A DNA stretch of 60,002 nt from Gammaproteobacteria bacterium (lineage in GTDB: Bacteria > Pseudomonadota > Gammaproteobacteria > Steroidobacterales > Foliamicaceae): positions 1 to 60,002 of the forward strand of contig JAPOTY010000040.1 of NCBI GenBank assembly GCA_026708965.1, given 5' to 3'. A model generated the notes under the pieces. The model was not told the origin of the DNA. It searched no databases and worked only from the letters and a program-made list of their open reading frames with translations. Below are positions 1 to 47,848 of the stretch, piece after piece. Both the position numbers and the translations under genes were made by a program. Position 1 is the stretch's first letter. Every line of letters begins with the position of its first letter.

Positions 1-96
1 TGCGCGTTCCCCTCTCGCGGGAGACGCATGAACCCATCCATGGGGCTTGGCGGCGGCATCCCTGCCGCCGACACTCCCGCGAGAGGGGAACGCGCA
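1..96 (+). repeat. Palindromic three-way-junction element R1
   Basis: Outer arms 1-23 and 74-96 are perfect inverted repeats ending in GGGAG/CTCCC; the element may extend past the window edge. The core 24-73 starts ACGCATGAA and folds into two hairpins: CCCAT/ATGGG (33-37 with 40-44, loop CC) and an 8 bp stem CGGCGGCA/TGCCGCCG (51-58 with 63-70, loop TCCC). Same architecture as R2-R8 with a different outer arm. It pairs head-to-head with R2, 46 bases away. No T-run follows, so it is not a standard intrinsic terminator. Confidence 0.85.
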
Positions 97-142
97 AAGA
101 GGCTCCGGCTGGCGCAGACCCCCAAGGATCGGCACCCCGCAA

Positions 143-249
143 GCCCACTGCTTGCTTCCTTCTTCCGGGAGTATCGGAGCCAAGGATGGCGGAGCAAGCT
201 ACATGGATGTATTCATGCGTCTCCCGGAAGAAGGAAGGAAGCAGTGGGC
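143..249 (-). repeat. Palindromic three-way-junction element R2
   Basis: Arms 143-171 and 221-249 match as inverted repeats at 28 of 29 positions (mismatch at 154 against 238). The core 172-220 reads in minus orientation (ends ATGCGT on the plus strand). Its first hairpin is TACAT/ATGTA (200-204 with 207-211), where R1 has CCCAT/ATGGG: a compensated change at two pairs. The second is GCCA/TGGC (179-182 with 187-190). It lies 37 bases beyond the stop codon of the downstream DUF1838 gene and forms an inverted pair with R1. Confidence 0.85.
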
Positions 250-286
250 GAATCAAAGCGCCCACCCCGGGTTCGTTCATTCCAAG

Positions 287-1210
287 TCAGTCGGTGGCGG
301 GGTTTTCCGCAGCGCGCTTGGCATCGATATGGTCCTTGAATACGGTCCATGATGTCTCCTTGGGGTTCTCGGTGCGGATAGGCGGCGGCTCGCGGTACTC
401 GGGGTAGTTGGCATCGATCTCATCCAGCATCACGGCCGGCATTTCGTCGAAACCGCTGAGGCGGATTCCGGCGGTATGAAACACCACCACGCCGGGGCGG
501 TCGCCCATCTTCATCCACGGCAGCCATTTCGACACCCGCCCCCAGGAAATGATGCGGTCCTGCGCGGCGGGAAGGTCCGCATCGAGGATTTCATCGGCCG
601 GCGATGCGCCGGTGCCGAATTCCATCGCGTGGTAGATGCCGCCCACGTACTGCTGGTAATCGCCGCCCAGCGGGTTGCTGTAGAACAACCGCGCCGCGCC
701 GCCGCCATTCATCATCAGGCCGTCCTTGAAGAAATACGACAGGGTTGCGCTGGGATTGCCGTCCTCGTCGCGGGCCCAGACCTCGCGGTAGTTGCCGGGC
801 GGATCGTTGGCCACTTGAACCACTTCAACCTCCTCGCCGGTCCAAGGATTGGCCCAGGTTCTCACCACTTCGTTGGTGTCCGGGTCCAAGTAGAGCATCA
901 GTTCCCGCGAGCGCGCCACAAAACCCAGGCCGCGCACGGGATCGTTGAGCGTTTCGCAGTGGCGGATATTCATGCCCTGCACGTTGAACAGGTGGCGGTT
1001 TTTCTCGGCGGGCTTGCGCGAGTACATCCGCCCTTCCCACCAGTAAAGCGCCGTCTCGCCGTCGTTCATCGAGCAGCGGGTTTTCATCAGCAGGCGAATC
1101 ACGTCGTCGGGATCGTCGAGGTCCAGTTGCCCGCCGTAAGCGGCGCCCGCTGCCAGCGACAACGCGGCGACCCATGCGGCCAGCCGGGATCGATTTTCGC
1201 GTGTTTTCAT
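287..1210 (-). CDS. DUF1838 family exported protein (copy A)
   Basis: 307 aa. The start at 1210 is chosen because its ATG overlaps the upstream gene's TGA as ATGA and lies 10 bases after GGAGG; an ATG three codons earlier sits directly on that ribosome binding site. An N-terminal hydrophobic segment (about residues 9-24, AALSLAAGAAYG) looks like a signal peptide. The mature part shows the DUF1838 pattern also seen in copies B and C of this window: GMNIRHC, an NPWTGEEVEV segment, a VANDP segment and a WLPWMKMGDRPG block near the C-terminus. The family has no established biochemical function. It is tandem and translationally coupled with copy B, downstream of a UbiD decarboxylase, so a role in the same catabolic process is inferred. 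Confidence 0.85.
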   Translation of the reverse strand: MKTRENRSRLAAWVAALSLAAGAAYGGQLDLDDPDDVIRLLMKTRCSMNDGETALYWWEGRMYSRKPAEKNRHLFNVQGMNIRHCETLNDPVRGLGFVARSRELMLYLDPDTNEVVRTWANPWTGEEVEVVQVANDPPGNYREVWARDEDGNPSATLSYFFKDGLMMNGGGAARLFYSNPLGGDYQQYVGGIYHAMEFGTGASPADEILDADLPAAQDRIISWGRVSKWLPWMKMGDRPGVVVFHTAGIRLSGFDEMPAVMLDEIDANYPEYREPPPIRTENPKETSWTVFKDHIDAKRAAENPATD

Positions 1211-2115
1211 TGCCGCCATTCCTCCTCAGGCTCGGTGATCGATTTGAAGTACGACCAGCTCGTCACATTGGGCCTTGGATCGTCCAAGGGCGGCGGCTCG
1301 GCGTATTCGGGATAGCGGTTGCGCAGTTCGCTGAGCAAAGGCTCGGTCAAATCGTCGATGCCCGCCACCCGCTTGCCGACGGTGGTGAAGATCATCATTC
1401 CGGGGCGGTCGCCCATCCTCATCCACGGCAGCCACTTGGAGGTGCGGGCCCAGGAAAGGCTGTAGCGCTTGAGCGTCTTCAGGTCCGGATCCAGCAGCTC
1501 GTCCTCATAGGCGTAGCCGTTGAGCATTTCCATCGCTTGATAGGTTCCGCCCACGTAGTCCTGGTAGTCGCCCGCCAGCGGGTTTTCGTAAAACAGCGTG
1601 GAGAAGCCGGTGGCCCAGACCCGGCCGTTGATGAAAGTGCCGTTGAACCGGTAGCCGCTGCCATCGGCACGGTAGGCGTAGGACGGGCCGCGCATATTCA
1701 CCGGATCGTTGGCCACATGCACCACCTCAACCTCCTCGCCGGTCCAGGGATTGGTCCAGGCGCGAAGAATTTCGTTGCTTGAGGGATCCATGTAGATCAA
1801 AATCTCGCGCGACACCGAGCGGTAGCCGTGGCCGCGTTCGGGATCCTCGAAATTCCTGCACTGGCGGATATTCATGCCCTGCACGTTGAACAGGTGGCGG
1901 TCCTTCTCGCCGGGCATGCGGCTCATGGCCCCGCCCTGCCACCAGTAAAGAACGGTCTCGCCCTCGTTCAGCGAGCAGTTCAACTTCTGCGCCAGCAAAA
2001 TGGCGTGTTCCGGTTTCGCCGGATCCAAGCGTTCGGCCGCCGGCAAAGCAGCGCTGGCCAGCGCCAGCAAGGCCACCGCTGCGGCACCCTGCGCCGGACG
2101 AAATAATGTTCGCAT
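1207..2115 (-). CDS. DUF1838 family exported protein (copy B)
   Basis: 302 aa, ATG preceded by GGGAG. Residues about 8-27 (GAAAVALLALASAALPAAE) look like a Sec signal peptide. It is clearly paralogous to the next gene: both have HLFNVQGMNIR, NPWTGEEVEVV, VANDP and WLPWM-MGDRPG blocks in the same order. Its stop codon overlaps the start of copy A (ATGA), so the two are co-translated. The 404 bases upstream, before the UbiD gene, contain palindromic elements R3 and R4. The function of the domain is unknown; two secreted paralogues side by side could form a heteromer or act on related substrates, but that is a guess. Confidence 0.85.
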   Translation of the reverse strand: MRTLFRPAQGAAAVALLALASAALPAAERLDPAKPEHAILLAQKLNCSLNEGETVLYWWQGGAMSRMPGEKDRHLFNVQGMNIRQCRNFEDPERGHGYRSVSREILIYMDPSSNEILRAWTNPWTGEEVEVVHVANDPVNMRGPSYAYRADGSGYRFNGTFINGRVWATGFSTLFYENPLAGDYQDYVGGTYQAMEMLNGYAYEDELLDPDLKTLKRYSLSWARTSKWLPWMRMGDRPGMMIFTTVGKRVAGIDDLTEPLLSELRNRYPEYAEPPPLDDPRPNVTSWSYFKSITEPEEEWRQ

Positions 2116-2235
2116 TTCAGTTTCTCCCTAGGAAGACCGGGCGAGAGCCGCAACTCCCGACCGGGGCCGCTATCCTAACCCAAGTCCTGCTCCCGCATTG
2201 CGCGCTCCTAGCTTCCAAGCGAGCCGCAGTCCCCC

Positions 2236-2343
2236 GGTTGCTCCGCCGTCCTGTTTCCCGGAGACGCCGACAAGCACATCCCTGTGGGCTCTGCGGCGGC
2301 ATCCTGCCGCCGAAGCTCCGGGAAACAGGACGGCGGAGCAACC
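2236..2343 (+). repeat. Palindromic three-way-junction element R3
   Basis: Perfect 28 bp inverted arms 2236-2263 and 2316-2343, inner end GGAG/CTCC. The core 2264-2315 folds into CACA/TGTG (2275-2278 with 2283-2286, loop TCCC) and an 8 bp hairpin CGGCGGCA/TGCCGCCG (2294-2301 with 2305-2312, loop TCC). The first stem differs from R1 by paired changes. It lies between the UbiD and DUF1838 genes, 42 bases from R4 and head-to-head with it. Confidence 0.85.
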
Positions 2344-2360
2344 TTCAGTGGCACGACCAC

Positions 2361-2389
2361 GCCAGCTAAAGCCCCGCCAGCTAAAGCCC
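2361..2389. repeat. Short tandem repeat, 14-mer twice
   Basis: GCCAGCTAAAGCCC occurs at 2361-2374 and again at 2376-2389, in the spacer between R3 and R4; the second copy overlaps the first bases of the R4 left arm. Minor feature, possibly slippage next to the palindrome. Confidence 0.7.
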
Positions 2390-2492
2390 TGTTCTTGTCC
2401 CTGCCTCGCGGGAGCGTCTGGGGCAGGATGCCCCAGCCGAGCCCCATGGATGGGTTCATGCGTCTCCCGCGAGGCAGGGACAAGAACAGGGC
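2386..2492 (-). repeat. Palindromic three-way-junction element R4
   Basis: Perfect 29 bp inverted arms 2386-2414 and 2464-2492. The core 2415-2463 is in minus orientation: 8 bp hairpin CTGGGGCA/TGCCCCAG (2418-2425 with 2429-2436, loop GGA, TCC on the other strand), then CCCAT/ATGGG (2443-2447 with 2450-2454). The GC-rich stem replaces the CGGCGGCA/TGCCGCCG of R1 and R3 with matching changes on both sides. It ends 27 bases beyond the UbiD stop codon. Confidence 0.85.
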
Positions 2493-2519
2493 GAGGGAAA
2501 GCACACAGATGGCGCCGCC

Positions 2520-3959
2520 TCAGCAAGCAGGCCAAGCATCCATCGCCGCCGAGTCCGCTAGCCGTGAGAGAAGCGCCTCGGCCCGCGCCAGCGCCGCCGC
2601 ATCCGGATGCGCCACCGGCGGCACCCCCCGACCTACGCGAAGCGTGGCATCCAAGCCCGCCTTGGACGCGGTCTTGCGGCCCGGCTCCAGCGAAGGATCG
2701 AGCAGCGAAGTCGAAAGGCCGTCCACGCGAATCAAATCGCGGTCCCATTGAAAGCGCGTGGCCAGCGCCCAGTTCACCTGCCGCGCATCGAACAAGTCGA
2801 TATCCGCATCCACGGCCACTGCGGTTTTCACGCGCCTCCAGGCGAGCGCCGCCGCCAGCGCGTCGCGCACCTCCCCGGGCGGCGCGCCGTCGAATTGCAG
2901 CAGCGCCAGAAAGCGGCGGCCATCAGCCGGAACATGCACATTAAGCAGGCGCGGCGATACCGCTTTCGCCAATGAATAGAGCCGCCCTTCCATAGCGATA
3001 TTGTCCGGAACCAGGTTGTCGGCCAAACCGGAGCCGCAATCGTGCAGCACGGCGTGCGGCCGATGCGAAATCGATAGCACTTCGCATATCGGCGCATCCA
3101 CGGCCGGCCCTAAAAATCCGGTGTATTCGGCAAACGGCCCGTCCGCACCGGTGGCGCCCGGATGCGCCAGCCCCTCGATCACGAATTCGGCATCCGCCGG
3201 AACCTTGAGGCGGTCGCCGAAATGCAGCGAGGGCGTGAGCCGCAGCGGCCCGCCCAAAAGCCCGCCGGCCGCCGGCCAGTGGCTTTCGGGATGGCCCAGC
3301 TTGACCTGCGCGGCCACGCTCACCGCCGGGTGATGGCCCACCCAAAGCGCCACCGGGCAGGGTTCGCCGCGCCCATGCCAAGCGCGCATGTTGCGGGCGT
3401 TGTGGGAATTCGGATAAGGGAACCAGGTCATGCGCCGCGCCTCCTTGATCCAGCAGCGCTGAATGGCCGAGTTATCGATGCCCGATTCGGGATCCACGGT
3501 GGTGGCGTGGGCGGCGGTGAGATACGGCCCGGGGTTGCCTTGGTGCTGCACCGTGGCCGGCAGCCGGCGCAAATCGGCCTCGCCGCCTTCCAGCACCATC
3601 GAGCGCACCGGCGCTTGCTCCGCCGGCACGGTCACCGGCGCCGCCCGCTGCTGCTGGCGCTCGGCCCACCAGGCGGCGGCGCGGCGGGAGTCGCCCAGCC
3701 CCAGCGCCGCGCATACCAGCCGCCGGCTGGCGGTGAGATTGGTGGCCAGCGAAAACGCCGCGATCCCGCCATCCGCCAGCTGCGGCTTTCGCACCCAAAC
3801 CGGCGGATAGCGCCCCGCCCGGTCCAGCGCATGCTGCAAGGCGGTGACCTCGTATTCCACCGCCAGCGGCTCCTCCACCCGCAAAACCTGCCCGCCCAGC
3901 GATTCCAGCCAGACGGCCAAGCCTGCTGAAGCGTCAATCACGCCGTTCGCGGCGCTCAT
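2520..3959 (-). CDS. UbiD family (de)carboxylase, divergent active site
   Basis: 479 aa. UbiD enzymes use prenylated FMN to (de)carboxylate aromatic or alpha,beta-unsaturated acids. Family features seen: an N-terminal alpha/beta domain, the cofactor region around NSAIQR (Arg168, equivalent to the catalytic Arg), and the GPF-E motif read here as ADGPFAEYTG (residues 272-281). The usual first Glu of E-G-P-F-x-E is Asp273; the second is Glu278. No UbiX (prenyl-FMN synthase) is in the window. It is divergent from a PaaK-like CoA ligase 230 bases away and upstream of two DUF1838 genes, which suggests a decarboxylation or carboxylation plus CoA-activation pathway. The substrate is unknown. Confidence 0.85.
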   Translation of the reverse strand: MSAANGVIDASAGLAVWLESLGGQVLRVEEPLAVEYEVTALQHALDRAGRYPPVWVRKPQLADGGIAAFSLATNLTASRRLVCAALGLGDSRRAAAWWAERQQQRAAPVTVPAEQAPVRSMVLEGGEADLRRLPATVQHQGNPGPYLTAAHATTVDPESGIDNSAIQRCWIKEARRMTWFPYPNSHNARNMRAWHGRGEPCPVALWVGHHPAVSVAAQVKLGHPESHWPAAGGLLGGPLRLTPSLHFGDRLKVPADAEFVIEGLAHPGATGADGPFAEYTGFLGPAVDAPICEVLSISHRPHAVLHDCGSGLADNLVPDNIAMEGRLYSLAKAVSPRLLNVHVPADGRRFLALLQFDGAPPGEVRDALAAALAWRRVKTAVAVDADIDLFDARQVNWALATRFQWDRDLIRVDGLSTSLLDPSLEPGRKTASKAGLDATLRVGRGVPPVAHPDAAALARAEALLSRLADSAAMDAWPAC

Positions 3960-4084
3960 CGCACCCGGCGGATAAGGAAGCGCAGCGCCAGCCGCCCCTG
4001 CGGATCAGCTGGCGGGCGAGCTCGCTGGTGGAAGGCCATGGCCAAGCGATTCTAACCGCCGGAAGGGGCCGGCCCGGCGGAGAG

Positions 4085-4096
4085 GAAACCGGTTTC
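4085..4096. promoter_or_regulatory. 12 bp perfect palindrome in divergent intergenic region
   Basis: GAAACCGGTTTC lies between the divergent UbiD gene (start 3959) and acyl-CoA ligase gene. A related GAACCCGGTTGTTC follows at 4133-4146, inside a hairpin whose 7 bp arms are 4124-4130 and 4149-4155. Position and symmetry fit an operator controlling the divergent pair; no regulator gene is adjacent. Bases 3960-4189 hold nothing else I can assign. Confidence 0.35.
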
Positions 4097-4189
4097 TTGA
4101 CCCTTCTGGCAATATCCTTGAAGCAGGGCGAAGAACCCGGTTGTTCCCCGCCCTGGAAGCGCAGCGAACGGGGAGGCGTAAAGAACCCT

Positions 4190-5572
4190 TTGAATAAGGA
4201 GCATCTGCCGGACTATTTCTCGACCGCCAATCCGGCGGCGCTGCGGCGCGAGTACCCGCTGGGCGGCGATTTCATGGAGCGTTTCGGCGGAATGAGCCGC
4301 GACGAGCTGCGCGCCATCCAAGAGGCGCGGTTCCGGCGCTGCCTGGAGCGCGCCTGGGCCACGCCGTTCTACGCCCGGCTGTGGGGCGACGCGGGGCTGG
4401 AGCCCGGCGACGTGCAAAGCCTTGATGAGCTGCCCCGGCTGCCGATCTTCTCCAAATCCGACCTCATGGACAGCGTGGAGCGCCATCCGCCGTTCGGCGA
4501 CTACCACGGCAACCGCGACGATCCGCCCGGCGTGCCGCCCGCAGGTCTGGTGATGCAAACCACCAGCGGCACCACCGGCGCGCCCCAGCCGCTCTTCTTC
4601 GGCCCGAAAAGCCGCGAGCTGCAGGCGCTGATGGTGGCGCGCGCCTGGCTGCTGCAAGGGCTGAAGAGCGCCGATATCATCCATTCCAGCTACGCGCACG
4701 GCATGGTGAACGCCGGCCATTTCGTGCGCGAGGCGGCGCTGCACTACACGCGCTCGGTGCTGCTTCCGGCCGGCGCCGGCAACGAAACGCCTTCCGCGAC
4801 CCAAGTGGCGAACATGGCGCGCTTCGGCGCTACCGTGCTGGTGGGTTTCGCCGACTACCTTCGCAAGCTGGCCGACACCGCGCGGGCCGGCGGCCTTGAG
4901 CCCGGACGCGATATCCGCATCCGCATGATCTCCTCCCACCTGGGCCTCATGCCGCGCGAGGAGCTGGCCCAAGCCTGGGCCGCCGAGGCGGTGTACGACT
5001 GGTACGGCGTGGGCGATACCGGGCTGATCGCCGCCGAAGGGCCCGATCTCGACGGCATGCATCTGATGGAGGACGCCCATTTCGTGGAAATCGTCGATCC
5101 CGCCTCGCATGCGCCGGTGGAGGAAAGCCAGCCGGGCGACCTCGTTTGCACCTGCCTCTACAAGAACGATGCCTACCCCGTTATCCGCTTCAACACCCGC
5201 GACCTGAGCGCCCGGCTGCCGGGCGGCAACCCGTTGGGCCTGCCATTCCAGCGCATCGCCGGTTTTATGGGGCGCAGCGACAATATGGTGAAATTCAAGG
5301 GCATCAATTTCTACCCGGAGGCGGCCGCCGCCGCGCTCATGGAGCTGAAGGAATATGCCGGCGACTATGTGTGCGTCCGCGAAGGGGAAAAGCTGCATAT
5401 CGAGATTGAAGCGAACCACCCTGCGCCAGCAGGCCTGGCGGACCGGATCGGCGCGCTGATTCGCGAAAGACTGGGCGTGAGAGTGCCGGTGATGCTGCGG
5501 CGGCCAGGCAGTCTGGCGGAACTCACCGGCTCGGAATCGCGCCAGAAACCACGGCGCCTGATCTCGCGCTGA
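4190..5572 (+). CDS. PaaK-like phenylacetate-CoA ligase family protein
   Basis: About 460 aa if translation begins at TTG 4190, which follows GGAGG by 13 bases. The frame is open back to 4028, but that stretch (palindrome, hairpin) looks non-coding, and ATG 4274 is a fallback. ANL-superfamily adenylation enzyme: the nucleotide-binding loop TTSGTTGAPQPLFFG (gene positions about 4558-4602), YDWYGVGDTG, and a C-terminal FMGRSDNMVKFKGINFYP block typical of PaaK-type ligases. Such enzymes activate aryl or arylacetic acids to acyl-CoA thioesters using ATP. Divergence from a UbiD gene suggests both act on the same carboxylated compound. The exact acid is not predictable. Confidence 0.8.
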   Translation: MNKEHLPDYFSTANPAALRREYPLGGDFMERFGGMSRDELRAIQEARFRRCLERAWATPFYARLWGDAGLEPGDVQSLDELPRLPIFSKSDLMDSVERHPPFGDYHGNRDDPPGVPPAGLVMQTTSGTTGAPQPLFFGPKSRELQALMVARAWLLQGLKSADIIHSSYAHGMVNAGHFVREAALHYTRSVLLPAGAGNETPSATQVANMARFGATVLVGFADYLRKLADTARAGGLEPGRDIRIRMISSHLGLMPREELAQAWAAEAVYDWYGVGDTGLIAAEGPDLDGMHLMEDAHFVEIVDPASHAPVEESQPGDLVCTCLYKNDAYPVIRFNTRDLSARLPGGNPLGLPFQRIAGFMGRSDNMVKFKGINFYPEAAAAALMELKEYAGDYVCVREGEKLHIEIEANHPAPAGLADRIGALIRERLGVRVPVMLRRPGSLAELTGSESRQKPRRLISR

Positions 5573-5646
5573 GCGCTTGCGGCGGACTTGGTGGACAATA
5601 GCAGCCTCGACTGATTGCATACGCTGTAAGCGGGAGGCATAGCCGC

Positions 5647-7833: not shown

Positions 7834-7872
7834 CGCATCCTGCGCTTGGGCGTGAGCGTTACGGTGAGCGAA

Positions 7873-15209: not shown

Positions 15210-16516
15210 TCCTCAAGCCGGATGGCGTCCAGGCCCGGCACTTGCTTGGAAACGAACTCGTCTTCCCGGCCGAAGGGCCGGGTGGCGTCCAGCCCTAACC
15301 GTCCGGCGAAGTCATCCTGGGCATCGCGGTAGAACCCGGCCCGGCCGACCACAATGCGGGCGCGCTTATCTACCCGGCCGCGGGTGATGAAGGCGTGGAT
15401 CACCGCGTTCATGTCGTGCAAATCCACATCTTCCTCCACCACGCAGCAAAGCTGGTTGTAGTCGGCGTGGCTGTCGAACACCGCATCCATCACGTCGCGG
15501 GCGTGGCCGGCGTACTGCGGGCGTATCTGCACGGTGGTGTTCATGAACGCCGGCGCGCAGGAGACGTTGACGATTCCCGGCAAACGCCGGGTCAAATCGC
15601 GGTACACGCGCGCAGCGTTGATCGCCTCAAGCGGGGCAAGGTCCTCGCGGGAACCGCACAGCAGGCTGTGGAATATCGCATCGCGCCGCCAAGCCACGCG
15701 TTCCACTTCCATAACGTGGTTTGGCGCCTCAGGAACGTAGTATCCGAGAACTTCGCCGAACGGCCCCTCGAGGCGCCTTTCCACCGGCAGGATCCGGCCC
15801 TCAATGACGACTTCGGTGGCGGCGGGAACCGGAAGGCCGGTGACCGCTCCGGAATACACGTCCACCTGTTGGCCCATCAGTTCCGCCGCCAGCGCGTACT
15901 CGTCAACTCCAGCCGGAAGATGAGTGCCGGCCGCCATAAACACCGGCGGCGGCACGCCGATCAGCAGCGCCACGGGCAGCGCCTGACCGGACTCCTCGGC
16001 ACGGCGCTGGTAGTTCGTGAGATCGTGACTGTCGCCTAAGCGCAGGCGCAGTTCCCGCGGACCGGCGTGCATCGCCCGATGAAACGACAGGTTCGGCACG
16101 CCCGTATCGGGATCGCGGGCCAGAACGATCGCGGCGGTGAAGTACGGCCCGGCATCGCGCTCATGGTAGGTGATCAACGGCAGATCGGCCAGCTGCCCCT
16201 CCTGGAGATCCCCCGGCATCAGAGCCTCCCGAGCGGGCGGCCCGACCCGGGACTCCGCAGCGTCGAGCATGCCCGCGTAGGCGGCGGCGAAAGGCCCGTC
16301 TTTTACCGGCACGAGGCTTCGCAGGCGCTCCGCGTCGGCAAACAGGTTGGTCACAACCTCAAGCCGCGTTCCCCTAACGTTTCGGAATAGGATCGGGCGG
16401 TTGCCCGCTTGCTGGGCCCGCTTAGTCACCGCCGCCAGCTCAAAGCGGGGATCGACCTCCCGCTCGGCAACCAGCAGTTCTCCGGCCTCGGCCAGCCGGT
16501 TGACCCATTCCCTCAT
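15182..16516 (-). CDS. UbiD family (de)carboxylase, canonical motif
   Basis: 444 aa from ATG 16516, whose A is the last base of the upstream MFS stop (TGATG), so the two are co-translated. Prenyl-FMN-dependent decarboxylase family: NLSFHR (Arg147), and the canonical EGPFGE motif with Glu250 and Glu255, followed by VLGYYVPE. It differs clearly from the other UbiD in this window, which has Asp at the first position. Last gene of the minus-strand run that starts at 28358. The substrate is probably imported by the coupled MFS transporter; its identity is unknown. Confidence 0.88.
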   Translation of the reverse strand: MREWVNRLAEAGELLVAEREVDPRFELAAVTKRAQQAGNRPILFRNVRGTRLEVVTNLFADAERLRSLVPVKDGPFAAAYAGMLDAAESRVGPPAREALMPGDLQEGQLADLPLITYHERDAGPYFTAAIVLARDPDTGVPNLSFHRAMHAGPRELRLRLGDSHDLTNYQRRAEESGQALPVALLIGVPPPVFMAAGTHLPAGVDEYALAAELMGQQVDVYSGAVTGLPVPAATEVVIEGRILPVERRLEGPFGEVLGYYVPEAPNHVMEVERVAWRRDAIFHSLLCGSREDLAPLEAINAARVYRDLTRRLPGIVNVSCAPAFMNTTVQIRPQYAGHARDVMDAVFDSHADYNQLCCVVEEDVDLHDMNAVIHAFITRGRVDKRARIVVGRAGFYRDAQDDFAGRLGLDATRPFGREDEFVSKQVPGLDAIRLEDYLTRGSRR

Positions 16517-17814: not shown

Positions 17815-18729
17815 CTAGTTCATGATCTGCGGAAGCGGCGGCAGCGTGTGAATCTCAAGCACCGTCGTGACCGCCCGGGTTGACATCACCGGCACGCCGG
17901 CGCCGCGGGCGGTCTCCTCGAGCGCGGCGTGCTCGACGCTCAAGGTGTAGCGGCTGGCGGGCGCCAGCGCGAAGGCCGGGATCACCCGCCGGGCATCGGA
18001 CCAGAGCATGAAGCGCTGGCCCTGGAAAGGCCGGCCGCTGTGATCCACCTTGTAGTCGTCCTCATCGCGCAGGATCACGAAAATCATGTCATCGCAGATC
18101 TGGCGCGGATCGGCGCGGCCGGATTCGAAGGGCGTGTAATTCACCACCAGGTCCTGAACGGGGTCCACGCTGTCGAAAGCGACCTTCGCGCCGTTCTGCT
18201 CCAGCCATACGGCGGGGCCAGCCGGATACTCGCCTTCGCCAAGCCGGACGCTGATGGAAACAGGCTCATCCGCATCCGGCGGCGAGTAACGGAAGACGTA
18301 CTCCCCGTTCGGCCATTCCGCGTCCAGCGCCGCCGCGCTGTCGTAGCGGCGTCCGCCCCGCACCAGCAGAATCTGATCCTGCGTGGGCCCCATGGCCCCG
18401 CGTTGATCGGTGAAGGCCACCTCGCGCCCGTCCGGGCGGATCAGCGCGGCCTCGCCGAGCGGCGTGCCTTCCGCTAGGAAAATCTCCGAAAAGAACGAGT
18501 AGAACTGGCGTTCAGGCCTATGCTCGCCAATCTGCTCATACCCGGCATGTTTTCCGACCACGGCGAAATTCACGTCGCGCGTTTGCGCGATAGCCTGGAT
18601 TGGCGCCCAAGCTGCCGCGGTGGCGAAAATAGCCGCCAAGGCCGCAATCCATCGGCAGCCGACGACCGGCCCGCTCCTTAAGCCAAGGCCAGCTTTCCCC
18701 CCGGGCGGGGCCGGAAGCCCTTGCCCCAT
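17815..18729 (-). CDS. Exported protein of unknown function
   Basis: About 304 aa from ATG 18729; the start is uncertain. A TTG at 18783 extends the frame into the end of the TonB receptor gene, and AAGGAG at about 18677 suggests an even later start. A hydrophobic stretch ending WAPIQAIAQ reads as a signal peptide and the rest is soluble and beta-rich (paired segments about 130 and 220). No catalytic motif recognised. Lies directly downstream of a TonB receptor and upstream of the MFS-UbiD pair, so it may be a periplasmic binding or processing partner. Confidence 0.65.
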   Translation of the reverse strand: MGQGLPAPPGGKAGLGLRSGPVVGCRWIAALAAIFATAAAWAPIQAIAQTRDVNFAVVGKHAGYEQIGEHRPERQFYSFFSEIFLAEGTPLGEAALIRPDGREVAFTDQRGAMGPTQDQILLVRGGRRYDSAAALDAEWPNGEYVFRYSPPDADEPVSISVRLGEGEYPAGPAVWLEQNGAKVAFDSVDPVQDLVVNYTPFESGRADPRQICDDMIFVILRDEDDYKVDHSGRPFQGQRFMLWSDARRVIPAFALAPASRYTLSVEHAALEETARGAGVPVMSTRAVTTVLEIHTLPPLPQIMN

Positions 18730-35840: not shown

Positions 35841-35941
35841 GCTTTTTTGCGCGTATTCCTCTCGCAGGAGGCGCCATCCTTGGCTTGGTTCCGCCATCCA
35901 TGGCTCCAACACTCCTGCGAGAGGAATACGCGCAAAAAAGC
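35841..35941 (+). repeat. Palindromic three-way-junction element R5
   Basis: Perfect 30 bp arms 35841-35870 and 35912-35941, ending AGGAG/CTCCT. The core 35871-35911 holds two hairpins with TCC loops: GCCA/TGGC (35873-35876 with 35881-35884) and GCCAT/ATGGC (35893-35897 with 35900-35904). The arms begin GCTTTTTT and end AAAAAAGC, the reverse polarity of a terminator. Single copy between the convergent proS and acylphosphatase genes. The arm shares about 15 bases near the core with R1 but diverges outward. Confidence 0.85.
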
Positions 35942-38972: not shown

Positions 38973-39113
38973 GCCTCTTTCGGCCCCTTCCCTGCCGGGA
39001 GACGCTGTGCGGGCCAAGCCATTGGCCCGCACTGGCTCGGTTCCGCTCTGTGCGCCAAGCCATTGGCGCACAGTGGCTCGAACGCTCCCGGCAGGGAAGG
39101 GGCCGAAAGAGGC
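38973..39113 (+). repeat. Palindromic element R6, two long identical-loop hairpins
   Basis: Perfect 29 bp arms 38973-39001 and 39085-39113 ending CGGGAG/CTCCCG. The core 39002-39084 starts ACGC and ends AACG and holds two perfect 11 bp hairpins, 39007-39017 with 39022-39032 and 39048-39058 with 39063-39073, both with loop GCCA closed by CCAA/TTGG. TGGCTCG follows each (39033-39039, 39074-39080). The hairpins differ by compensated pairs (GCGGG/CCCGC against GTGCG/CGCAC). Same outer architecture as R1-R5 with a different core. Lies between the glycosyltransferase and dapD. Confidence 0.85.
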
Positions 39114-39213
39114 GAGGAAAAAGCATTAAACTATGCGAATAGGCTCGGCGGGGATGCGATAATTACTAGGTTTGCCGCTGGATGAGCGGCGGGATTCACC
39201 TCGAGAGCTGAAC

Positions 39214-41173: not shown

Positions 41174-41247
41174 CGGCGGGTGCCGGGCCAGACCTGCATC
41201 GCCGCATCAGCGCGCCTCCCCTGGTGATGGCGCGGCGCCGGGGCGGC

Positions 41248-42051: not shown

Positions 42052-42198
42052 CCGAGCACGCAAACTTTCGTGTTTGCTTGAAGCGCCGATAGAAATCCGA
42101 GCGCGAAATCAGCGTGATGCCAATGCGCCATGAGGCGGATAGCGGTTACCAGAGACGGCTACGTGCAGCTTTATGCCGCCCGCCGCTAAGATCAAGGG

Positions 42199-42963
42199 TT
42201 AGAACATGTCCCAAGGGTAGTTGAGGTTGGAGTCCGCCGCAGCGAAGATTTTGCCGCCGGTGGAGGGGTCGTCGAGCGCATCGACGATCAGGCCGGCCAG
42301 GTCGCTGCGGTTGATGATGCCGAAGGCTTCGCGGTCTTCGCTCAAATAGCCGTTGCCGGTGGGCGCATCGGTGCGCAGCGCGCCCGGGCGGATGATGGTG
42401 TAATCCAGGCCGCTGGCCGCGAGGTGCTCTTCGGCCTGGGTCTTCAAGGGCAGGATCTCGCGGAGGAAAATCCGGGCCATCCACGGCGCGGCGCTATAGC
42501 TGTCGCCCGCGCCTATCGTTGTGACTAGCAGCATCCGGGCGATGCCGGCCTCGGCGGCCGCGTCGAAGATATTCGCGTTGCCCAGATAGTCGGGCCGCGG
42601 ATCGCAACTGAAGCAGCCGATGGTGGTGATCGCGGCCGTGTAGTCGCCGGCCTCGAATGCGGCGCGCACGCTGTCGGAATCAAGCGCGTCGCCCACCGCG
42701 AACTCCACGCCCAGCGGCTCCAGCCCGGAGCGGTCGGAGCTGGGCCTGACGAACGCGGTGACCCGGTCGCCGCGCGCGGCGAGCAGCTTGGCCACCTCCA
42801 GGCCGGTATTTCGGGTGCCGCCGAACAGCAGCACATGTTGGCCGCCCTCCGGCGGAGCGGCCGCCGTCATTTCGTAAACGGGGTACTGGGTGATTCGCAG
42901 CGACACTAGGACAAGCACGGCGATCACCGCCAGCAAGGCAAGAATAATGCGTTTGAATGTCAT
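42199..42963 (-). CDS. Membrane-anchored atypical SDR (NAD(P)H-binding)
   Basis: 254 aa. A hydrophobic N-terminal anchor (residues 5-23, [18 protein letters not shown]) precedes an NmrA/atypical-SDR Rossmann domain: [40 protein letters not shown] and [12 protein letters not shown]. Enzyme or redox-sensor role unknown. Convergent with proC; the 147-base gap contains a small GCAAAC/GTTTGC hairpin at 42060-42077. Divergent from rpsU, the place usually taken by tsaD in gammaproteobacteria. Confidence 0.8.
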
Positions 42964-43094
42964 GGTCGGATAATTCTCCCGAGTGTCGTGTTCCGCCCCT
43001 ATTGTCGCATCAAAACAGGCGCGGCAACATCAAGCAATTGCAATGGGGGTGGGCAATCGCTACAATCCGCCGTCCTTGCGATGAGGAACCTGAC

Positions 43095-43310
43095 TTGCCG
43101 ACCGTACGGGTAAAAGAGAACGAGATTTTTGACGCGGCCCTGCGCCGCTTCAAACGCGCCTGCGAAAAGGCCGGCATCCTGGCCGAGGTTCGTCGGCGCG
43201 AGTTCCACGAGAAGCCAACTCAGATCCGCAAGCGCCAGAAAGCGGCCGCAGTCAAGCGCCAGGCCAAACGCACCAGCCGCGAAACCAACCGCCGCCGCCG
43301 CCTCTACTAA
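43095..43310 (+). CDS. rpsU: Ribosomal protein S21
   Basis: 71 aa from TTG 43095, which follows GAGGA by 7 bases and gives exactly the E. coli length and N-terminus ([19 protein letters not shown] against MPVIKVRENEPFDVALRRF). Highly basic C-terminus ends RRRRLY. Component of the 30S platform near the anti-Shine-Dalgarno. First gene of the rpsU-dnaG-rpoD operon. The TTG start may damp its translation relative to other ribosomal proteins. Confidence 0.95.
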
Positions 43311-43440
43311 CCCCCAACTCCCGCGAGGCGGGGGATCAGCACAGAGCGAGGCAAGGGCAAGCAAAGGGCGGGGGAGCAAGCCTGACGGAAAACCTCGAGC
43401 GGCTTGGGGAAGCAGGGCGGATGGTGCAATATTCGGGATT

Positions 43441-45099
43441 ATGGCGGGGCCGATTCCGAGAGAGTTTATCGACGATCTCCTTGATCGCGCGGATATCGCT
43501 GAAATCATCGGCGAGCGCGTCAAGCTCACCCGCGCCGGACGCGAATACAAGGGCCTTTGCCCCTTTCACCAGGAAAAGACGCCGTCATTCACGGTCAGCC
43601 CGGCCAAGGGCTTTTTCCACTGCTTCGGCTGCGGCGCCCACGGCAGCGCCCTGAGTTTCCTGATGCAGCACGACCGGCTGGACTTCCCCGCCGCAGTCGA
43701 GGCGCTGGCCGATCGCTACGGCTTGGAAGTGCCGCGAACAGGGCCTTCCAGACCCTCAGGCAAGGGGCTTTACGAGTTGCTTCAGGATGCCTCGCGACAC
43801 TATATCGAACAGCTCAAAAGCCATTCAGCCGCCAAGGAATACCTACAGGGCCGCGGGCTGACCGGAGCCATCGCGCGCGATTTCGCGCTCGGCTACTCGC
43901 CTAAGGGCAACAGCCTGCTGGCCCGTTTCGGGCAAACGGAGGAGGACCGCCGCCGCCTGGTTGATGCCGGACTGGCGATCAGGAACGATTCCGGCGATCT
44001 CTACGACCGGTTCCGCGACCGCATTATGTTTCCGATCCGGGACCGCCGCGGCCGCGTCGCCAGCTTCGGCGGGCGCGCCATGGGCGAGGCGCAGCCCAAG
44101 TACATGAACGGCCCTGAAACCCCGGTATTCCACAAGGGACGAGAACTCTACGGCCTCTACGAAATGCCCCGGGGCAAGGTTCCGCAGTGCCTTCTGGTGG
44201 AAGGATATATGGACGTGATCGGGCTGGCCCAGCACGGGGTGGCGGGCGCCGTGGCTCCGCTGGGCACTGCGGTGACGCCGCGGCAGCTCACGCGGCTGTT
44301 CGGCATTGCCCCCAGCGTGGTGTTCTGTTTCGACGGCGATGCCGCAGGCCGCCGCGCCGCTGAACGCGCAATGGAGCGAACGCTCCCGGAAATGCGCGCG
44401 GGCCGGGAACTGGGGTTCGCATTTCTTCCGGAGGGGGAGGATCCGGACAGTTTCGTTCAATCCAAAGGCGCCGCCGCCTTCCGTGAAATCATCGAGCAGG
44501 CCGCGCCGATGTCCGAATTCATGATGGCGACCCTCTCGCAAAAGTGCGACATGGCCACCATTGAGGGGCGCGACCGAATGGCGGAGCGGGCGAGGCCGTT
44601 GATCGCGAAAACACCCGTTGGCGTGTACCGCGACCTGCTTTTTGCGCGTCTGGCCCAGGAGGTGGGCCTTGAGGAGGAAAGGCTGCGCCAGCTTCTGCAA
44701 GCGGCGCCGGAACGGCGCAGAACGGCGCGGCCCGTGCCGGCGCAATCCGCCGCAAGCGGACCCTTCGACACTTTGGGCGAATCCTTGGCCGGGCTGATCC
44801 TGAACTTCCCCGAACTGGCTTCCGCCAGCGAACCGCTGCCGGAACTCGATTATTTCCCGGAATCGCGCGTGGCCCTGTTCAAAGACCTGTTCGAACACGC
44901 GCGCGCCATGCCAACGGCCAATGCGGCCAAGCTGCTCGAACGCTATCGCGACCTTAAGGAACATGGGCTGATCGCCCGGCTGCTGGCCAGGAATTCCGGA
45001 CTCAATCCGCAGCAAGCGGAGCGCGAACTGAGCGGCGGCATCGAAAGGCTCGCCAAGGAGAACGCGCTGCGTCAAATGGCGGCCCGCACCCCGGACTGA
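43441..45099 (+). CDS. dnaG: DNA primase
   Basis: 552 aa from ATG 43441. Makes RNA primers for replication. Zinc-binding domain with Cys40, His43, Cys61 and Cys64 (CPFHQEKTPSFTV, FHCFGCG); RNA polymerase/Toprim core with LLVEGYMDVIGL and FDGDAAGRRAA; a C-terminal helicase-binding domain shorter than in E. coli (581 aa total there). The 130-base gap from rpsU contains CTCCCGCGAGGC, which resembles the inner arm of R4 but has no partner. Confidence 0.96.
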   Translation: MAGPIPREFIDDLLDRADIAEIIGERVKLTRAGREYKGLCPFHQEKTPSFTVSPAKGFFHCFGCGAHGSALSFLMQHDRLDFPAAVEALADRYGLEVPRTGPSRPSGKGLYELLQDASRHYIEQLKSHSAAKEYLQGRGLTGAIARDFALGYSPKGNSLLARFGQTEEDRRRLVDAGLAIRNDSGDLYDRFRDRIMFPIRDRRGRVASFGGRAMGEAQPKYMNGPETPVFHKGRELYGLYEMPRGKVPQCLLVEGYMDVIGLAQHGVAGAVAPLGTAVTPRQLTRLFGIAPSVVFCFDGDAAGRRAAERAMERTLPEMRAGRELGFAFLPEGEDPDSFVQSKGAAAFREIIEQAAPMSEFMMATLSQKCDMATIEGRDRMAERARPLIAKTPVGVYRDLLFARLAQEVGLEEERLRQLLQAAPERRRTARPVPAQSAASGPFDTLGESLAGLILNFPELASASEPLPELDYFPESRVALFKDLFEHARAMPTANAAKLLERYRDLKEHGLIARLLARNSGLNPQQAERELSGGIERLAKENALRQMAARTPD

Positions 45100-45151
45100 A
45101 ACCGCCGCCGGCCTGTATGATCGAGCACTCGCATTCTTTCGGAGCTTCGTA

Positions 45152-45565
45152 ATGGCGCAACGTATCTACTTGGGCGTGATGGCGGCGCTCTACTTCGCCT
45201 CGGCCCTCTATGCCTACCTGGACCCTGCGGCCTTGGGGCAATGGCTCGGGATCGCGTCGCTGGCCGACTCGGGCCATACCGAGATCCGCGCCACCTACGG
45301 CGGGCTGGTGCTGGGCAGCGGGCTGGTGCTGGCAGCGGGCGTGTGGTCGCGGAACTTTGCGCTGGCCGGTTTGCTGAGCACGGTTCTGGGCATGGGTTGC
45401 CTGGTGCTGACGCGGCTGGCGGCGGAGGTTTTCTCGGGCGGCCCCGGCATCGACGCGAATCAGGGCATCGTGATCGTGTTCGAGGGCGTGGCGGTGGCGC
45501 TGGCCGTGTTCTTTGCCCGCCGCGCGCTGCGCGAGAACCGCAAACTCGCCGACAGCCGCTATTGA
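45152..45565 (+). CDS. DUF4345 family membrane protein
   Basis: 137 aa, ATG 8 bases after GGAG. Four hydrophobic segments (about 5-23, 47-65, 70-92, 102-122). The stretch EIRATYGGLVLGSGLVL is typical of DUF4345 proteins. Function unknown. Unusually placed between dnaG and rpoD, on the same strand, 52 bases after dnaG and 59 before rpoD. Confidence 0.8.
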   Translation: MAQRIYLGVMAALYFASALYAYLDPAALGQWLGIASLADSGHTEIRATYGGLVLGSGLVLAAGVWSRNFALAGLLSTVLGMGCLVLTRLAAEVFSGGPGIDANQGIVIVFEGVAVALAVFFARRALRENRKLADSRY

Positions 45566-45589
45566 AGTATTGACATATGTAGGGATAAT
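45562..45589 (+). promoter_or_regulatory. Candidate sigma-70 promoter for rpoD
   Basis: TTGAAG (45562-45567), 16-base spacer, GATAAT (45584-45589), 36 bases before the rpoD start. The stretch is AT-rich against its GC-rich surroundings. A TTGACA at 45570-45575 has no well-spaced -10. It would allow rpoD transcription separately from rpsU-dnaG, as in E. coli. Confidence 0.45.
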
Positions 45590-45624
45590 TGATCGGTTAA
45601 TCTTAGCGGAGACTCCGGCCGGCC

Positions 45625-47568
45625 ATGACCGCAAATTCCACCACCCAGCGCGCTCCGCAGCGCAACTGGCTCAAGAACCTGATTTCGCTCGGGCGCCAGC
45701 GCTCGTACATTACCCATACGGACCTGACCGACCAGCTTCCCGACGAAATCGTCGAAATGGAGCAGATCGAGGAAATCATCAACGTGCTTCGCGATATGGA
45801 TATCAAGGTGTACGAGGAGGACGAGGTTCCCGACCCCGACACCTTGGCACTGTCCGAAGGCGAAGCCAGCGACGATTCCGACATGGAGGAAGCGGAGGAC
45901 GCGATCAGCGCCTTCGAGGTGGAGCTGGGCCGGACCACCGATCCGGTGCGTTTGTACATGCGCGAAATGGGTTCGGTGGAACTGCTGACCCGCGAGGGCG
46001 AAATCAGCATCGCGCGGCGAATCGAACAAAGCCGCGCGGAAATCAAGCGCCTGATGGCCTATTACCTCCCCTGCGTGAAATACTTGGCGGACCGCTTTGC
46101 GGATTGCCGGGCCGGGCAGATGAAATTAAGCGACTTGGTGGCCGGCATCATCGACCCGGACGAACCCGAGGATCTGCGTCCGGCGGCCGAACGCGATCCG
46201 GCGGAAAACGCCAACCGCAAGGCGCCGCCCGATCCGCAGGAGCTCGAGCGGCGAATGCTGGCGCTCAATGCCCAGTGCGCCCGTGTGCATCGGGCATTGC
46301 GCCGAGTGCGCGCCCAGGAACTGAAGGCCCGGTCCGACGAGGCGCCCGACCATTTCAAGCTCTCCTGCCGCAATCTGAACCATGCCCAGCAGGTGCTCGG
46401 CCGGATGCTGCTGGAACTGAAGTTCACGCCCCGGGCCTTCGACGGCATGCTCGATGCTCTGCACAGCACCATGCGGGCTCCTTCCGACGACCATGATGCC
46501 CTCTTCCCGTCGTCGGTGGCCGGATGCGAGAACCGGCTGCGCCATATCTATGTGCGTGGCGCGAAGGTTCCGGTAAAGCGCTTCAAGGACTATTTCGCCA
46601 CCGACCCCAGCAGCGACGGCTGGCTGGAGAAGATGCTCAAAAGCGAGGAGCACGGCCCCAAGCTGGCGCCCTATGCGGAAGAGGTGAGGCAGCTCACCCG
46701 ACGATTGCGCAGGCTCGAAGATAACTGCTCGCTGCCGATCAATCGCTTCAAAGCCATTCCGGCCGATGCCAGCGGTAAGCCCATGGCGCGCGGGATCAAG
46801 GAGCTGTACCGCGAAATTTCGCACAACGAGCTCAAGGCCAAGGATGCCAAGAAGGAAATGGTGGAGGCCAACTTGCGCCTGGTGATTTCGATTGCCAAGA
46901 AGTACACCAACCGCGGCCTGCAATTCAACGACCTGATCCAGGAAGGCAATATCGGCCTGATGAAGGCGGTGGATAAGTTCGAGTACCGCCGCGGCTACAA
47001 ATTCTCCACCTACGCCACTTGGTGGATCCGCCAAGCGATTACCCGCTCGATCGCCGATCAGGCGCGCACTATCCGCGTGCCGGTGCATATGATCGAAACC
47101 ATCAATAAGCTCAACCGGATCTCGCGGCAAATGCAGCAGGAGATGGGCCGGGATCCCACGCCTGAGGAATTGGCGCAACGCATGGAGATGCCGGAGGAGA
47201 AGGTCCGCAAGGTGCAGAAAATCGCCAAGCAGCCGATTTCGCTGGAAACGCCGCTGAGCGAGGATGAGGATTCGCACTTAGGCGACTTTATCGAGGACCA
47301 GAACGCCACCTCGCCCATGGATGTGGCCACCACGCGCGGGCTGGAGGAGACGATGCGCGATGTGCTGGCTTCTCTGGGGGCGCGCGAGGCCAAGGTGCTG
47401 CGGATGCGTTTCGGGATCGACATGAATACCGATCACACGCTGGAAGAAGTGGGCAAGCAGTTCGACGTGACGCGCGAGCGCATCCGGCAAATCGAGGCCA
47501 AGGCGCTGCGCAAGCTGCGCCATCCCAACCACGCCGAGCGCCTGCGAAGCTTCACCCAGGACGACTAA
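45625..47568 (+). CDS. rpoD: RNA polymerase primary sigma factor RpoD
   Basis: 647 aa. N-terminal region 1.1 ([19 protein letters not shown] to about residue 80), the acidic stretch around residues 55-90, region 1.2 [23 protein letters not shown], the proteobacterial non-conserved region (about 130-390), core regions 2-3 with [36 protein letters not shown] and [17 protein letters not shown], and region 4.2 [19 protein letters not shown]. All marks of group 1 sigma-70. Last gene of the operon; the shared terminator with R7/R8 begins 13 bases after its stop. Confidence 0.97.
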
Positions 47569-47600
47569 CCACCCCCACCCCCTCTCAAAAAGCCGGCGTT

Positions 47601-47708
47601 GCCGCTGCTGTTACCCCCGCTTCCCGGGAGACGCATAAACCCATCCCTGGGGCTCGGCGGCGGCTCCTGCCGCCGACGCTCCCGGGAAGCGGGGGTAACA
47701 GCAGCGGC
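47601..47708 (+). repeat. Palindromic three-way-junction element R7
   Basis: Perfect 30 bp arms 47601-47630 and 47679-47708 ending CGGGAG/CTCCCG. The core 47631-47678 begins ACGCATAAA: CCCA/TGGG (47640-47643 with 47648-47651, loop TCCC) and CGGCGGC/GCCGCCG (47658-47664 with 47669-47675, loop TCCT). A third copy of the arm, GCGGGGGTAACAGCAGCGGC, lies at 47867-47886 and continues pairing with the left flank to 47892. Confidence 0.85.
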
Positions 47709-47741
47709 GCACAGGCATCTCTTGCGCGGTGATCACCGTGC

Positions 47742-47848
47742 GCCGCGCTATTGGCCCTGCCTCGTGGGAGCGTCTGGGGCAGGATGCCCCAGCCGAGCCC
47801 CATGGATGGGTTTATGCGTCTCCCACGAGGCAGGGCCAATAGCGCGGC
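47742..47848 (-). repeat. Palindromic three-way-junction element R8
   Basis: Perfect 29 bp arms 47742-47770 and 47820-47848 ending TGGGAG/CTCCCA. The minus-oriented core 47771-47819 is nearly identical to R4: CTGGGGCA/TGCCCCAG (47774-47781 with 47785-47792) and CCCAT/ATGGG (47799-47803 with 47806-47810). Paired head-to-head with R7, 33 bases away; the spacer contains the palindrome CGGTGATCACCG (47727-47738). Confidence 0.85.

What the first reader, a model, noticed from the sequence alone, without database searches (positions are those of the whole stretch)
1..47848. Family of covarying, locus-specific palindromes that fold as three-way junctions
Eight intergenic elements (1-96, 143-249, 2236-2343, 2386-2492, 35841-35941, 38973-39113, 47601-47708, 47742-47848) share one architecture: 23-30 bp outer stem (perfect in seven, one mismatch in one), inner end GGAG/CTCC, and a core with two hairpins. 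The outer arm sequences differ from locus to locus, yet left and right always match. Inner stems also change in pairs: CCCAT/ATGGG against TACAT/ATGTA or CACA/TGTG, and CGGCGGCA/TGCCGCCG against CTGGGGCA/TGCCCCAG, while loops (ATCC type) stay. Ordinary dispersed repeats keep their sequence; here the structure is kept and the sequence is not. Either the folded DNA or RNA is selected, or a process such as template switching or conversion keeps rewriting one arm from the other. I do not recognise it as REP, ERIC, attC or any named family.
Basis: seen in the sequence. Interest (0 to 1): 0.88.

Follow-up and report, generated by a model that had tools for sequence, protein, structure and literature searches.

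The report
Mobile hairpins with co-changing arms
A group of related bacteria carries many short hairpin-shaped DNA repeats whose two arms keep changing together, most likely because DNA copying keeps rewriting one arm from the other, which shows that matched changes in a stem need not mean that its shape is useful.

Summary
The eight elements are real (E1 is cut by the contig start). They belong to a repeat family with 98 core-motif places in this genome and motif hits in all eight same-genus genomes. Found by core motif, 192 of 208 copies have matching arms; swapped arms match in 35 of 3000.

At orthologous sites the arms change in place, in pairs: taking per site the comparison least favourable to pairing, 17 sites show 25 paired and 8 one-sided differences, where independence predicts 0.65 and 56. 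The paired rate is 0.05-0.10 per position by choice of pairs, against 0.075-0.085 in flanks. Of 29 paired changes, 16 cannot pass through G.U. In a few copies the core is inverted between its arms. This fits template switching inside the hairpin; selection for the fold is not needed, though not excluded.

The elements are dispersed, present or absent at orthologous sites, and form doublets in fixed orientation: REPIN-like mobile repeats. No Y1 (REP) transposase was found in nine genomes; the mobiliser is unknown. Verdict: new variant of a known kind, with unusually clear natural evidence of arm rewriting.

The parts
1..103 (+). E1, element cut at its 5' end by the contig start (reader gave 1-96); core in + orientation; doublet with E2
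   Evidence: sister copies with the 30 bp arm in L005, L127, L129
143..249 (-). E2, arms 29 bp with 1 mismatch; hairpin 1 TACATCCATGTA
   Evidence: similar copies in L005, L099, L100, L107, L127, L130
2236..2343 (+). E3, perfect 28 bp arms, core sub-type ACGCCGACAAGCACATCC
2386..2492 (-). E4, perfect 29 bp arms; 96% identical over exactly the palindrome to L124, whose flanks lie in the opposite orientation
35841..35941 (+). E5, perfect 30 bp arms, short core with two small hairpins
38973..39113 (+). E6, perfect 29 bp arms; both core hairpins lengthened by a nested hairpin with CCAAGCCATTGG; flank motifs score as inverted relative to the core
47601..47708 (+). E7, perfect 30 bp arms; doublet with E8
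47742..47848 (-). E8, perfect 29 bp arms; doublet with E7
47578..47605 (.). left flank and first bases of E7; its inverted copy (96% complementary) is 47844-47871, right of E8: template-switch-like footprint
47866..47895 (.). second, overlapping inverted copy, of 47592-47621 (flank plus outer left arm of E7, 97% complementary)

Best explanation
A genus-restricted family of short, non-autonomous mobile palindromic repeats. One unit is about 130 nt: roughly 12 nt of weakly conserved left flank, a 27-31 bp outer stem, a conserved core (mostly 39-50 nt, longer with nested hairpins) with two small hairpins, the matching stem, and roughly 12 nt of right flank. After insertion the outer stem evolves in place by template switching during DNA synthesis. 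A point mutation in one arm makes a mismatch; when the hairpin forms on single-stranded DNA at a fork, the polymerase copies the other arm, so the mutation is either erased or copied into its partner. Arms stay near-perfect while drifting near the rate of the surrounding DNA, and matched arms that differ from locus to locus arise without selection for the fold. The same process would explain inverted cores and the inverted copies of flanking DNA beside E7/E8. Shown: the family, presence/absence at orthologous sites, paired change in place, its rate, scarcity of G.U in the outer stem, a few inverted cores. Inferred: the polymerase mechanism, neutrality of the arms, and whatever moves the element.
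For: Paired change in place. All 23 ortholog pairs with both flanks aligned to within 60 nt and at least 70% arm identity (not independent): 29 paired, 12 single, 1 other in 638 positions; independence predicts 0.68 and 67.9. One pair per site, 17 sites: 25 paired, 8 single, 1 other of 464 with the choice least favourable to pairing, or 25, 6, 1 of 468 with the first listed; predicted 0.65 and 56, 0.60 and 54. All 27 close pairs: 77, 14, 3 of 754; predicted 3.35 and 154. Paired rate per position 0.045 (23 pairs), 0.054 (17 sites), 0.102 (27 pairs) against 0.075, 0.075, 0.085 in 600 bp flanks. Of 29 paired changes, 16 are transversions. 3 of 1680 outer-stem cells in 60 palindrome-found copies are G.U. 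Mismatches over 242 copies: 22 G.T, 31 A.C, 45 other of 98. Core inverted relative to flanks: L099 and L124 are clear also by homology that ends exactly at the palindrome; E6 and a G004 copy by motif score. Within G000, sub-families against a consensus: 136 paired, 18 single over 60 memberships of 58 elements. An unrelated repeat behaves alike: 7 copies with varied arms, 0-1 mismatches each. Mobility: 10 sites between G005 and G006 where the other species has 17 nt or less in place. Template switching at quasipalindromes is established in E. coli (PMC7202029, abstract and part 1 of 4 read), arm homogenisation with spacer inversion in yeast (PMC8604942, abstract and passages).
Against: No mutational event was watched; the mechanism is inferred from patterns. 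Against the nearest 80 bp (0.115-0.137) the paired rate is lower (0.045-0.102), so some constraint is possible, and the core is slower still (0.030-0.049). Some orthologous sites carry quite different arms and cores (G004_L017/G005_L156/G006_L194; G000_L131/G005_L158), which could be replacement. Of the 19 copies scored as inverted, most lack a good motif in either orientation, and the motif model was fitted with flipping allowed. No mobiliser was found, and inserts bring 1-91 nt of extra sequence on either side of unknown origin. SbcD reaches the cut-off in 0 of 9 genomes (3 have weak matches; 8 of 14 controls pass), but strong SbcC is also rare outside the genus (2 of 69), so this does not explain the restriction to the genus. 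A proteobacterial survey described found repeat regions more conserved than their surroundings.
Confidence: 0.72

Rival explanations
1. The folded form, as RNA or single-stranded DNA, is selected; arms covary through ordinary compensatory substitutions.
For: Strong covariation; the core keeps at least two TCC in 229 of 240 copies, read as GGA on the other strand; placement by an ORF heuristic: 64 convergent, 92 tandem, 9 divergent, 9 at an edge, 39 called inside an ORF and 22 not classed, of 235, against 7, 25 and 7 gene pairs in the window; core and arms change more slowly than the nearest 80 bp.
Against: Compensatory evolution under strong constraint should be much slower than the flanks (inference), yet the paired rate is 0.6-1.2 times the 600 bp flank rate. 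G.U is scarce in the outer stem (3 of 1680 cells) although RNA selection tolerates it; 16 of 29 paired changes are transversions. No Rfam match in the window; no terminator-like site in 47500-48000.
Confidence: 0.14
2. Arms are reset only during transposition: the element moves as a folded single strand, mismatches are repaired in the hairpin, and differing arms at one site mean repeated insertion or replacement.
For: Different arms and cores at the same orthologous intergenic site; turnover at the E7/E8 site; doublets in fixed order, 23 of 25 adjacent pairs +- and 2 ++.
Against: Several orthologs differ by one paired change while flanks align to within 10 nt of the palindrome, so the same insertion seems to have changed in place (G002_L016/G006_L200, G005_L019/G006_L145, G005_L035/G006_L195).
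Confidence: 0.12
3. It is a REP/REPIN family mobilised by a Y1 (RAYT) transposase that was missed or lost.
For: Copy number, placement and doublets resemble REPINs; compensatory changes in REPIN hairpins are reported (PMC3116915, section 10 part 1 read).
Against: PF01797 in 0 of 9 genus genomes, one of them a single contig, while the control rang in 5 of 14 known genomes; no GTAG motif in the flank profile; unit about 130 nt with the variable stem outside and the conserved part inside.
Confidence: 0.08
4. Assembly artefact at hairpins.
For: Seven of 98 places lie within 30 bp of a contig start, so the repeats break this assembly.
Against: The single-contig genome G004 shows 28 copies, 12 mismatches in 834 arm bp; copies with arms were seen in nine genomes of the genus.
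Confidence: 0.02

Closest known systems
REPINs / REP elements with RAYT (PMC3116915: passages and section 10 part 1; PMC8266576: passages)
   Same: High copy number, hairpin-forming, doublets in fixed orientation; compensatory changes in the REPIN hairpin are reported
   Different: No Y1_Tnp in nine genomes; no GTAG motif in the flank profile; variable stem outside and conserved core inside; about 130 nt; arms seen here to change in place
CGTC-tagged REPs (PMC3733652: abstract and passages)
   Same: No dedicated transposase known; REPs there lie mainly downstream of genes; many copies here have CGTC beside hairpin 2 on the opposite strand
   Different: 20-40 bp with 8-9 bp stems beginning with A-T pairs and mostly an unpaired CCA tail; here a 27-31 bp outer stem and a two-hairpin core
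Quasipalindrome template switching in E. coli (PMC7202029: abstract and part 1) and yeast (PMC8604942: abstract and passages)
   Same: Mismatched arms are made perfect; arm homogenisation and spacer inversion
   Different: Known there from reporters and single genes; here a dispersed family with many copies per genome changes this way between species
Perfect inverted repeats in nematomorph mitochondrial genes (PMC6649704: passages)
   Same: Arms change between species but stay identical; a conversion mechanism was proposed
   Different: Those lie in coding mitochondrial DNA
Template-switch origin of RNA hairpins (PMC8794818: abstract and discussion)
   Same: Proposes that stem covariation can be mutational
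   Different: There the evidence for upkeep of short stems is called circumstantial; here stems are about 30 bp, with orthologs and a rate comparison

Membership tests
REP/REPIN | Y1 (RAYT) transposase in the genome | tested here: not met
   PF01797: 0 of 9 genus genomes; control rang in 5 of 14 known genomes
REP/REPIN | GTAG-type tetranucleotide beside the hairpin foot | tested here: not met
   flank profile of 168 of 223 copies..YYC|palindrome|TYNMG..
REP/REPIN | high copy, mostly extragenic, doublets in fixed orientation | tested here: met
   98 core-motif places; 23 of 25 adjacent pairs +-; placement by a rough ORF heuristic that called 39 of 235 inside an ORF
CGTC REP | 8-9 bp stem beginning with A-T pairs, CCA tail, 20-40 bp | tested here: not met
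   sequences compared by eye with the description
MITE | terminal inverted repeats conserved between copies | tested here: not met
   outer arms on average 43-51% identical between copies of one genome, inner GGAG excluded
MITE | target-site duplication | tested here: inconclusive
   none seen by eye at 10 clean occupied/empty sites; no formal test
Integron attC | outer simple sites RYYYAAC/GTTRRRY (recalled) | tested here: not met
   flank profile shows no such end; no integrase search was made
Rfam structured RNA | match to a curated covariance model | tested here: not met
   only 5S and LSU rRNA reached the gathering score in the window
Retroelement | reverse transcriptase (RVT_1) in the host genomes | tested here: not met
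   found in 4 of 9 genomes (G001, G003, G005, G007); absent in G000, which has most motif hits, and in G002, G004, G006, G008
Template-switch-maintained inverted repeat | paired changes in place exceeding one-sided changes | tested here: met
   25 against 8 at 17 sites, least favourable choice; predicted 0.65 against 56
Template-switch-maintained inverted repeat | spacer inversion between arms | tested here: met
   two copies clear by motif and homology (L099, L124), two more by motif score; 19 of 189 strong score calls in all, most weak
Template-switch-maintained inverted repeat | observed conversion of a mismatch by the polymerase | not testable with these tools
   needs a reporter or mutation-accumulation experiment

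The most novel reading that the evidence does not exclude
The element multiplies by a hairpin-copying process of its own: each cycle of spreading or repair is primed within the folded single strand and makes a new copy from one arm, so that rewriting of the arms is the replication mechanism and not a side effect. Mobility would then need no Y1, RVT_1 or TIR-recognising transposase, only the cell's replication fork and perhaps an unknown protein that binds the conserved hairpin loops.
Probability: 0.17. Interest if true: 0.88.

Novelty: new variant of a known kind. Interest (0 to 1): 0.62.

Why it matters
Stem covariation is the standard sign of a functional fold. Here about 30 bp stems covary almost perfectly in some two hundred copies, yet the pattern in orthologous pairs fits a copy-or-erase process that needs no selection. 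The family is a natural assay for template-switch mutagenesis in bacteria and a warning case for covariation-based discovery of structured RNA. It also raises the question of how a palindromic repeat spreads without the REP transposase.

Tried and rejected
RAYT/IS200-type mobilisation: PF01797 absent in 9 of 9 genus genomes. Retro-element: RVT_1 absent in 5 of 9, among them the genome with most motif hits. Transposon with cargo: inverted palindrome pairs of another family flank genes in G005 and G003, but among the ORFs listed there I saw no transposase by eye (no family search was made), so this was dropped. Phage spread: no exact core match in the viral collection; plasmids were not searched. 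Other genera: two of 30 non-genus genomes have a single one-mismatch hit; the one fetched (L018) shows no palindrome; the other was not fetched. Truncated copies pointing to a direction of copying: about nine left-half copies in G000, one probable right half (L122); all 32 exact right-half hits lie at known copies (compared by eye; its 27 one-mismatch hits were not sorted, control 19). The searches differ in reach, so only suggestive. SbcCD loss as the cause: not specific, since strong SbcC matches are rare in the order (2 of 69, one more intermediate); the cut-off of that model was met by only 1 of 14 controls. CsrA-like GGA loops on the opposite strand: a recalled resemblance, not tested.

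Mended on checking: the first ortholog table (38 paired, 5 single, 1 other in 528; predicted 1.09 and 76.5; paired rate 0.072, flanks 0.075) used 19 hand-chosen pairs. It left out six of the 23 pairs, with 3 paired and 7 single changes, and added two with 12 paired and none single, one of them below 70% arm identity. One search repeats the count without hand choice, and its figures replace those.

Literature: absence of this family in print rests on searches of an open-licence library only. PMC3820800 was seen as a search listing only; PMC5941160 is not held and is known only from a reference; the proteobacterial survey described is cited there by number.
Full report
WHAT IS THERE. All eight elements are present at the given coordinates. 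Seven have perfect arms; E2 has one mismatch. E1 is cut by the start of the contig: the window is G000:C47 from base 1, and its right arm continues to 103 and reads as the 30 bp arm of sister copies. E4, E5 and E6, folded as single-stranded DNA, form one long stem with a branched end, z-scores -11 to -15. In the window only 5S and LSU rRNA reach an Rfam gathering score.

HOW MANY, AND WHERE. The motif GGGAGACGCATGAACCCATC with up to 3 mismatches has 98 places in the 2.47 Mb genome and none when read backwards. A shorter motif hits all eight other genomes of the genus, 4 to 51 places each, and 2 of 30 other genomes of the order, one place each. The exact 20-mer occurs in 21 stretches of the genome collection, all titled MAG Gammaproteobacteria (records of the window's own genome may be left out there), and in none of the viral collection. 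I fetched the listed places of G000, those listed for G005, 27 of 32 listed for G006 and 30 of 32 of G004, and only single or incidental loci of the other five. From these, 242 oriented elements with arms of at least 16 bp were extracted. That extraction requires paired arms, so a control was made: 208 copies found by a 16-mer of the core, 192 with at least 22 of 26 arm positions matching, against 35 of 3000 with arms swapped between copies. Of the other 16, two score 21, and the 14 listed are mostly left-half copies, with a false hit, fused copies and others.

ANATOMY. Outer arms are mostly 27-31 bp, pyrimidine-rich on the 5' side, ending inside in a nearly invariant GGAG/CTCC. Cores are mostly 48-50 nt, with 18 of 39-41 nt and longer ones up to 83 nt carrying nested hairpins. 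Outside the palindrome about 14 nt left and 12 nt right are weakly conserved..YYC| and |TYNMG.. (168 of 223 copies). In 515 aligned copy pairs of G000, homology ends less than 20 nt left of the palindrome in 456 and less than 20 nt right in 415; the long exceptions I looked at belong to composite doublets. The unit is thus about 130 nt. Adjacent copies within 300 bp are in +- order in 23 of 25 cases and ++ in 2 (E7/E8, also +-, were left out). By a rough ORF heuristic 64 lie between convergent, 92 between tandem and 9 between divergent genes; 9 were at an edge, 39 called inside an ORF, 22 not classed, of 235; the window's own gene pairs are 7, 25 and 7.

COVARIATION. On 60 diverse copies, all chosen from palindrome-found ones, 25 of 28 outer pairs and 9 of 13 core pairs change on both sides; 761 cells show such change against 194 in shuffles and 116-146 in slid structures; the number of pair types, 90, does not exceed the shuffles (96.2). 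3 of 1680 outer-stem cells are G.U. Mismatches in the 242 copies are 22 G.T, 31 A.C and 45 others, no wobble excess on either strand. Hairpin 2 is unpaired at three positions in 22-30 of 60 copies; core pairs, unlike the outer stem, do show G.U (8, 7 and 2 cells).

CHANGE IN PLACE. Cross-species pairs with both flanks matching number 66; 27 have both flanks aligned to within 60 nt of the element, and 23 of these keep at least 70% arm identity. Those 23 (not independent) show 29 paired, 12 single and 1 other change in 638 positions; 16 of the 29 are transversions. Reduced to one pair per site, 17 sites give 25 paired, 8 single and 1 other of 464 with the choice least favourable to pairing, where independence predicts 0.65 and 56; all 27 close pairs give 77, 14 and 3 of 754. 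A hand-chosen table of 19 pairs (38 paired, 5 single) leaned towards pairing and is not used. Paired rates are 0.045 (23 pairs), 0.054 (17 sites) and 0.102 (27 pairs) per position; the 600 bp flanks 0.075, 0.075 and 0.085; the nearest 80 bp 0.119, 0.116 and 0.137; the core 0.030, 0.036 and 0.049. A neutral model in which each one-sided mutation is soon erased or copied with equal chance predicts a paired rate equal to the mutation rate (inference); the data are near the flank rate and below the nearest-flank rate, so some constraint is not excluded. With 1.4% mismatched positions (2.4%), resolution would be about 80-140 times faster than point mutation per site (inference). Within G000, five sub-families compared with a consensus show 136 paired and 18 single differences (60 memberships, 58 distinct elements).

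OTHER FOOTPRINTS. By a motif score fitted with flipping allowed, 19 of 189 strong calls have the core inverted relative to the flanks; most of these score low both ways. Two are clear: L099 and L124 match other copies (L124 matches E4 of the window) over exactly the palindrome while their flanks lie the other way round; E6 and a G004 copy score well by motif alone. Beside E8 lie two overlapping inverted copies of the left flank and outer arm of E7 (47844-47871 and 47866-47895). An unrelated repeat of the genus, with core AGGTTTTTAGAGGACGGAACGTCCTCGTTTCC, gave 14 hits: 7 copies with 30-34 bp arms that differ between most copies but carry 0-1 mismatches each, 3 without arms by the script, and 4 skipped because their context repeated one already counted.

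MOBILITY. Between G005 and G006, 16 of 67 element rows with both flanks found were flagged empty; on inspection 10 sites are clean (17 nt or less in place), one of them holding two elements; the others are partial or doubtful. At three sites a third species shares the empty or nearly empty state (3264, 4312, 48659). Inserts carry 1-91 nt of extra sequence on either side, and no target duplication was seen by eye. No Y1 transposase was found in nine genomes, and RVT_1 is missing from the genome with most motif hits. ExoVII is present in all nine; SbcD reaches the cut-off in none, with weak matches in three, but strong SbcC is rare across the order too, so loss of SbcCD is at most a permissive background.

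READING. The best account is a non-autonomous mobile hairpin, REPIN-like in behaviour but failing REP membership on transposase and tag, whose stem is rewritten in place by template switching. This process is established in E. coli reporters and in yeast, including spacer inversion, and was proposed for the upkeep of RNA stems and of nematomorph mitochondrial palindromes. Compensatory changes in REPIN hairpins were noted before. What seems new, within the searches made, is a dispersed bacterial family in which coupling is seen in place between species, near the flank rate, with the wobble and rate arguments against selection as its main cause. Selection on the core and partly on the arms, replacement at some sites and the identity of the mobiliser remain open.

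Noticed in passing
L050:9017-9108, L050:13281-13372, L064:1306-1397, L068:10401-10626: A second, unrelated repeat with core AGGTTTTTAGAGGACGGAACGTCCTCGTTTCC and arms that vary between copies but match within a copy; pattern hits in six of nine genus genomes, none in G000, G004 and G008; the two G006 hits had no arms.
   Followed up: partly
L051:17114-17286 and 18555-18727; L066:13320-13492 and 15836-16008: A third palindrome family (core with GTCGCGAAGTGG or near it) occurs as inverted pairs on both sides of a gene block in G005 and G003.
   Followed up: partly
G000 contig starts C6, C24, C27, C32, C33, C44, C47: Seven of 98 core-motif places lie within 30 bp of a contig start, so the repeats break the assembly.
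   Followed up: no
L006, L086, L087: Left-half copies directly followed by a full copy with a similar left arm, as if synthesis had restarted at the element.
   Followed up: partly
L093, near 1464-1530: Two half elements of different core types fused at their hairpin loops.
   Followed up: no
L074, L078, L080, L082, L131, L133, L034, L039: A nested hairpin module (GGGACATC or GGGATATC loop, varying stem) sits at the tip of hairpin 2 in copies with different arms, and is present or absent at orthologous sites (L019/L039, L034/L027).
   Followed up: no
window:54360-54543: A/T-rich stretch with two inverted repeats.
   Followed up: no
window:59569-60002: 5S and the end of 23S rRNA on the minus strand.
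   Followed up: no
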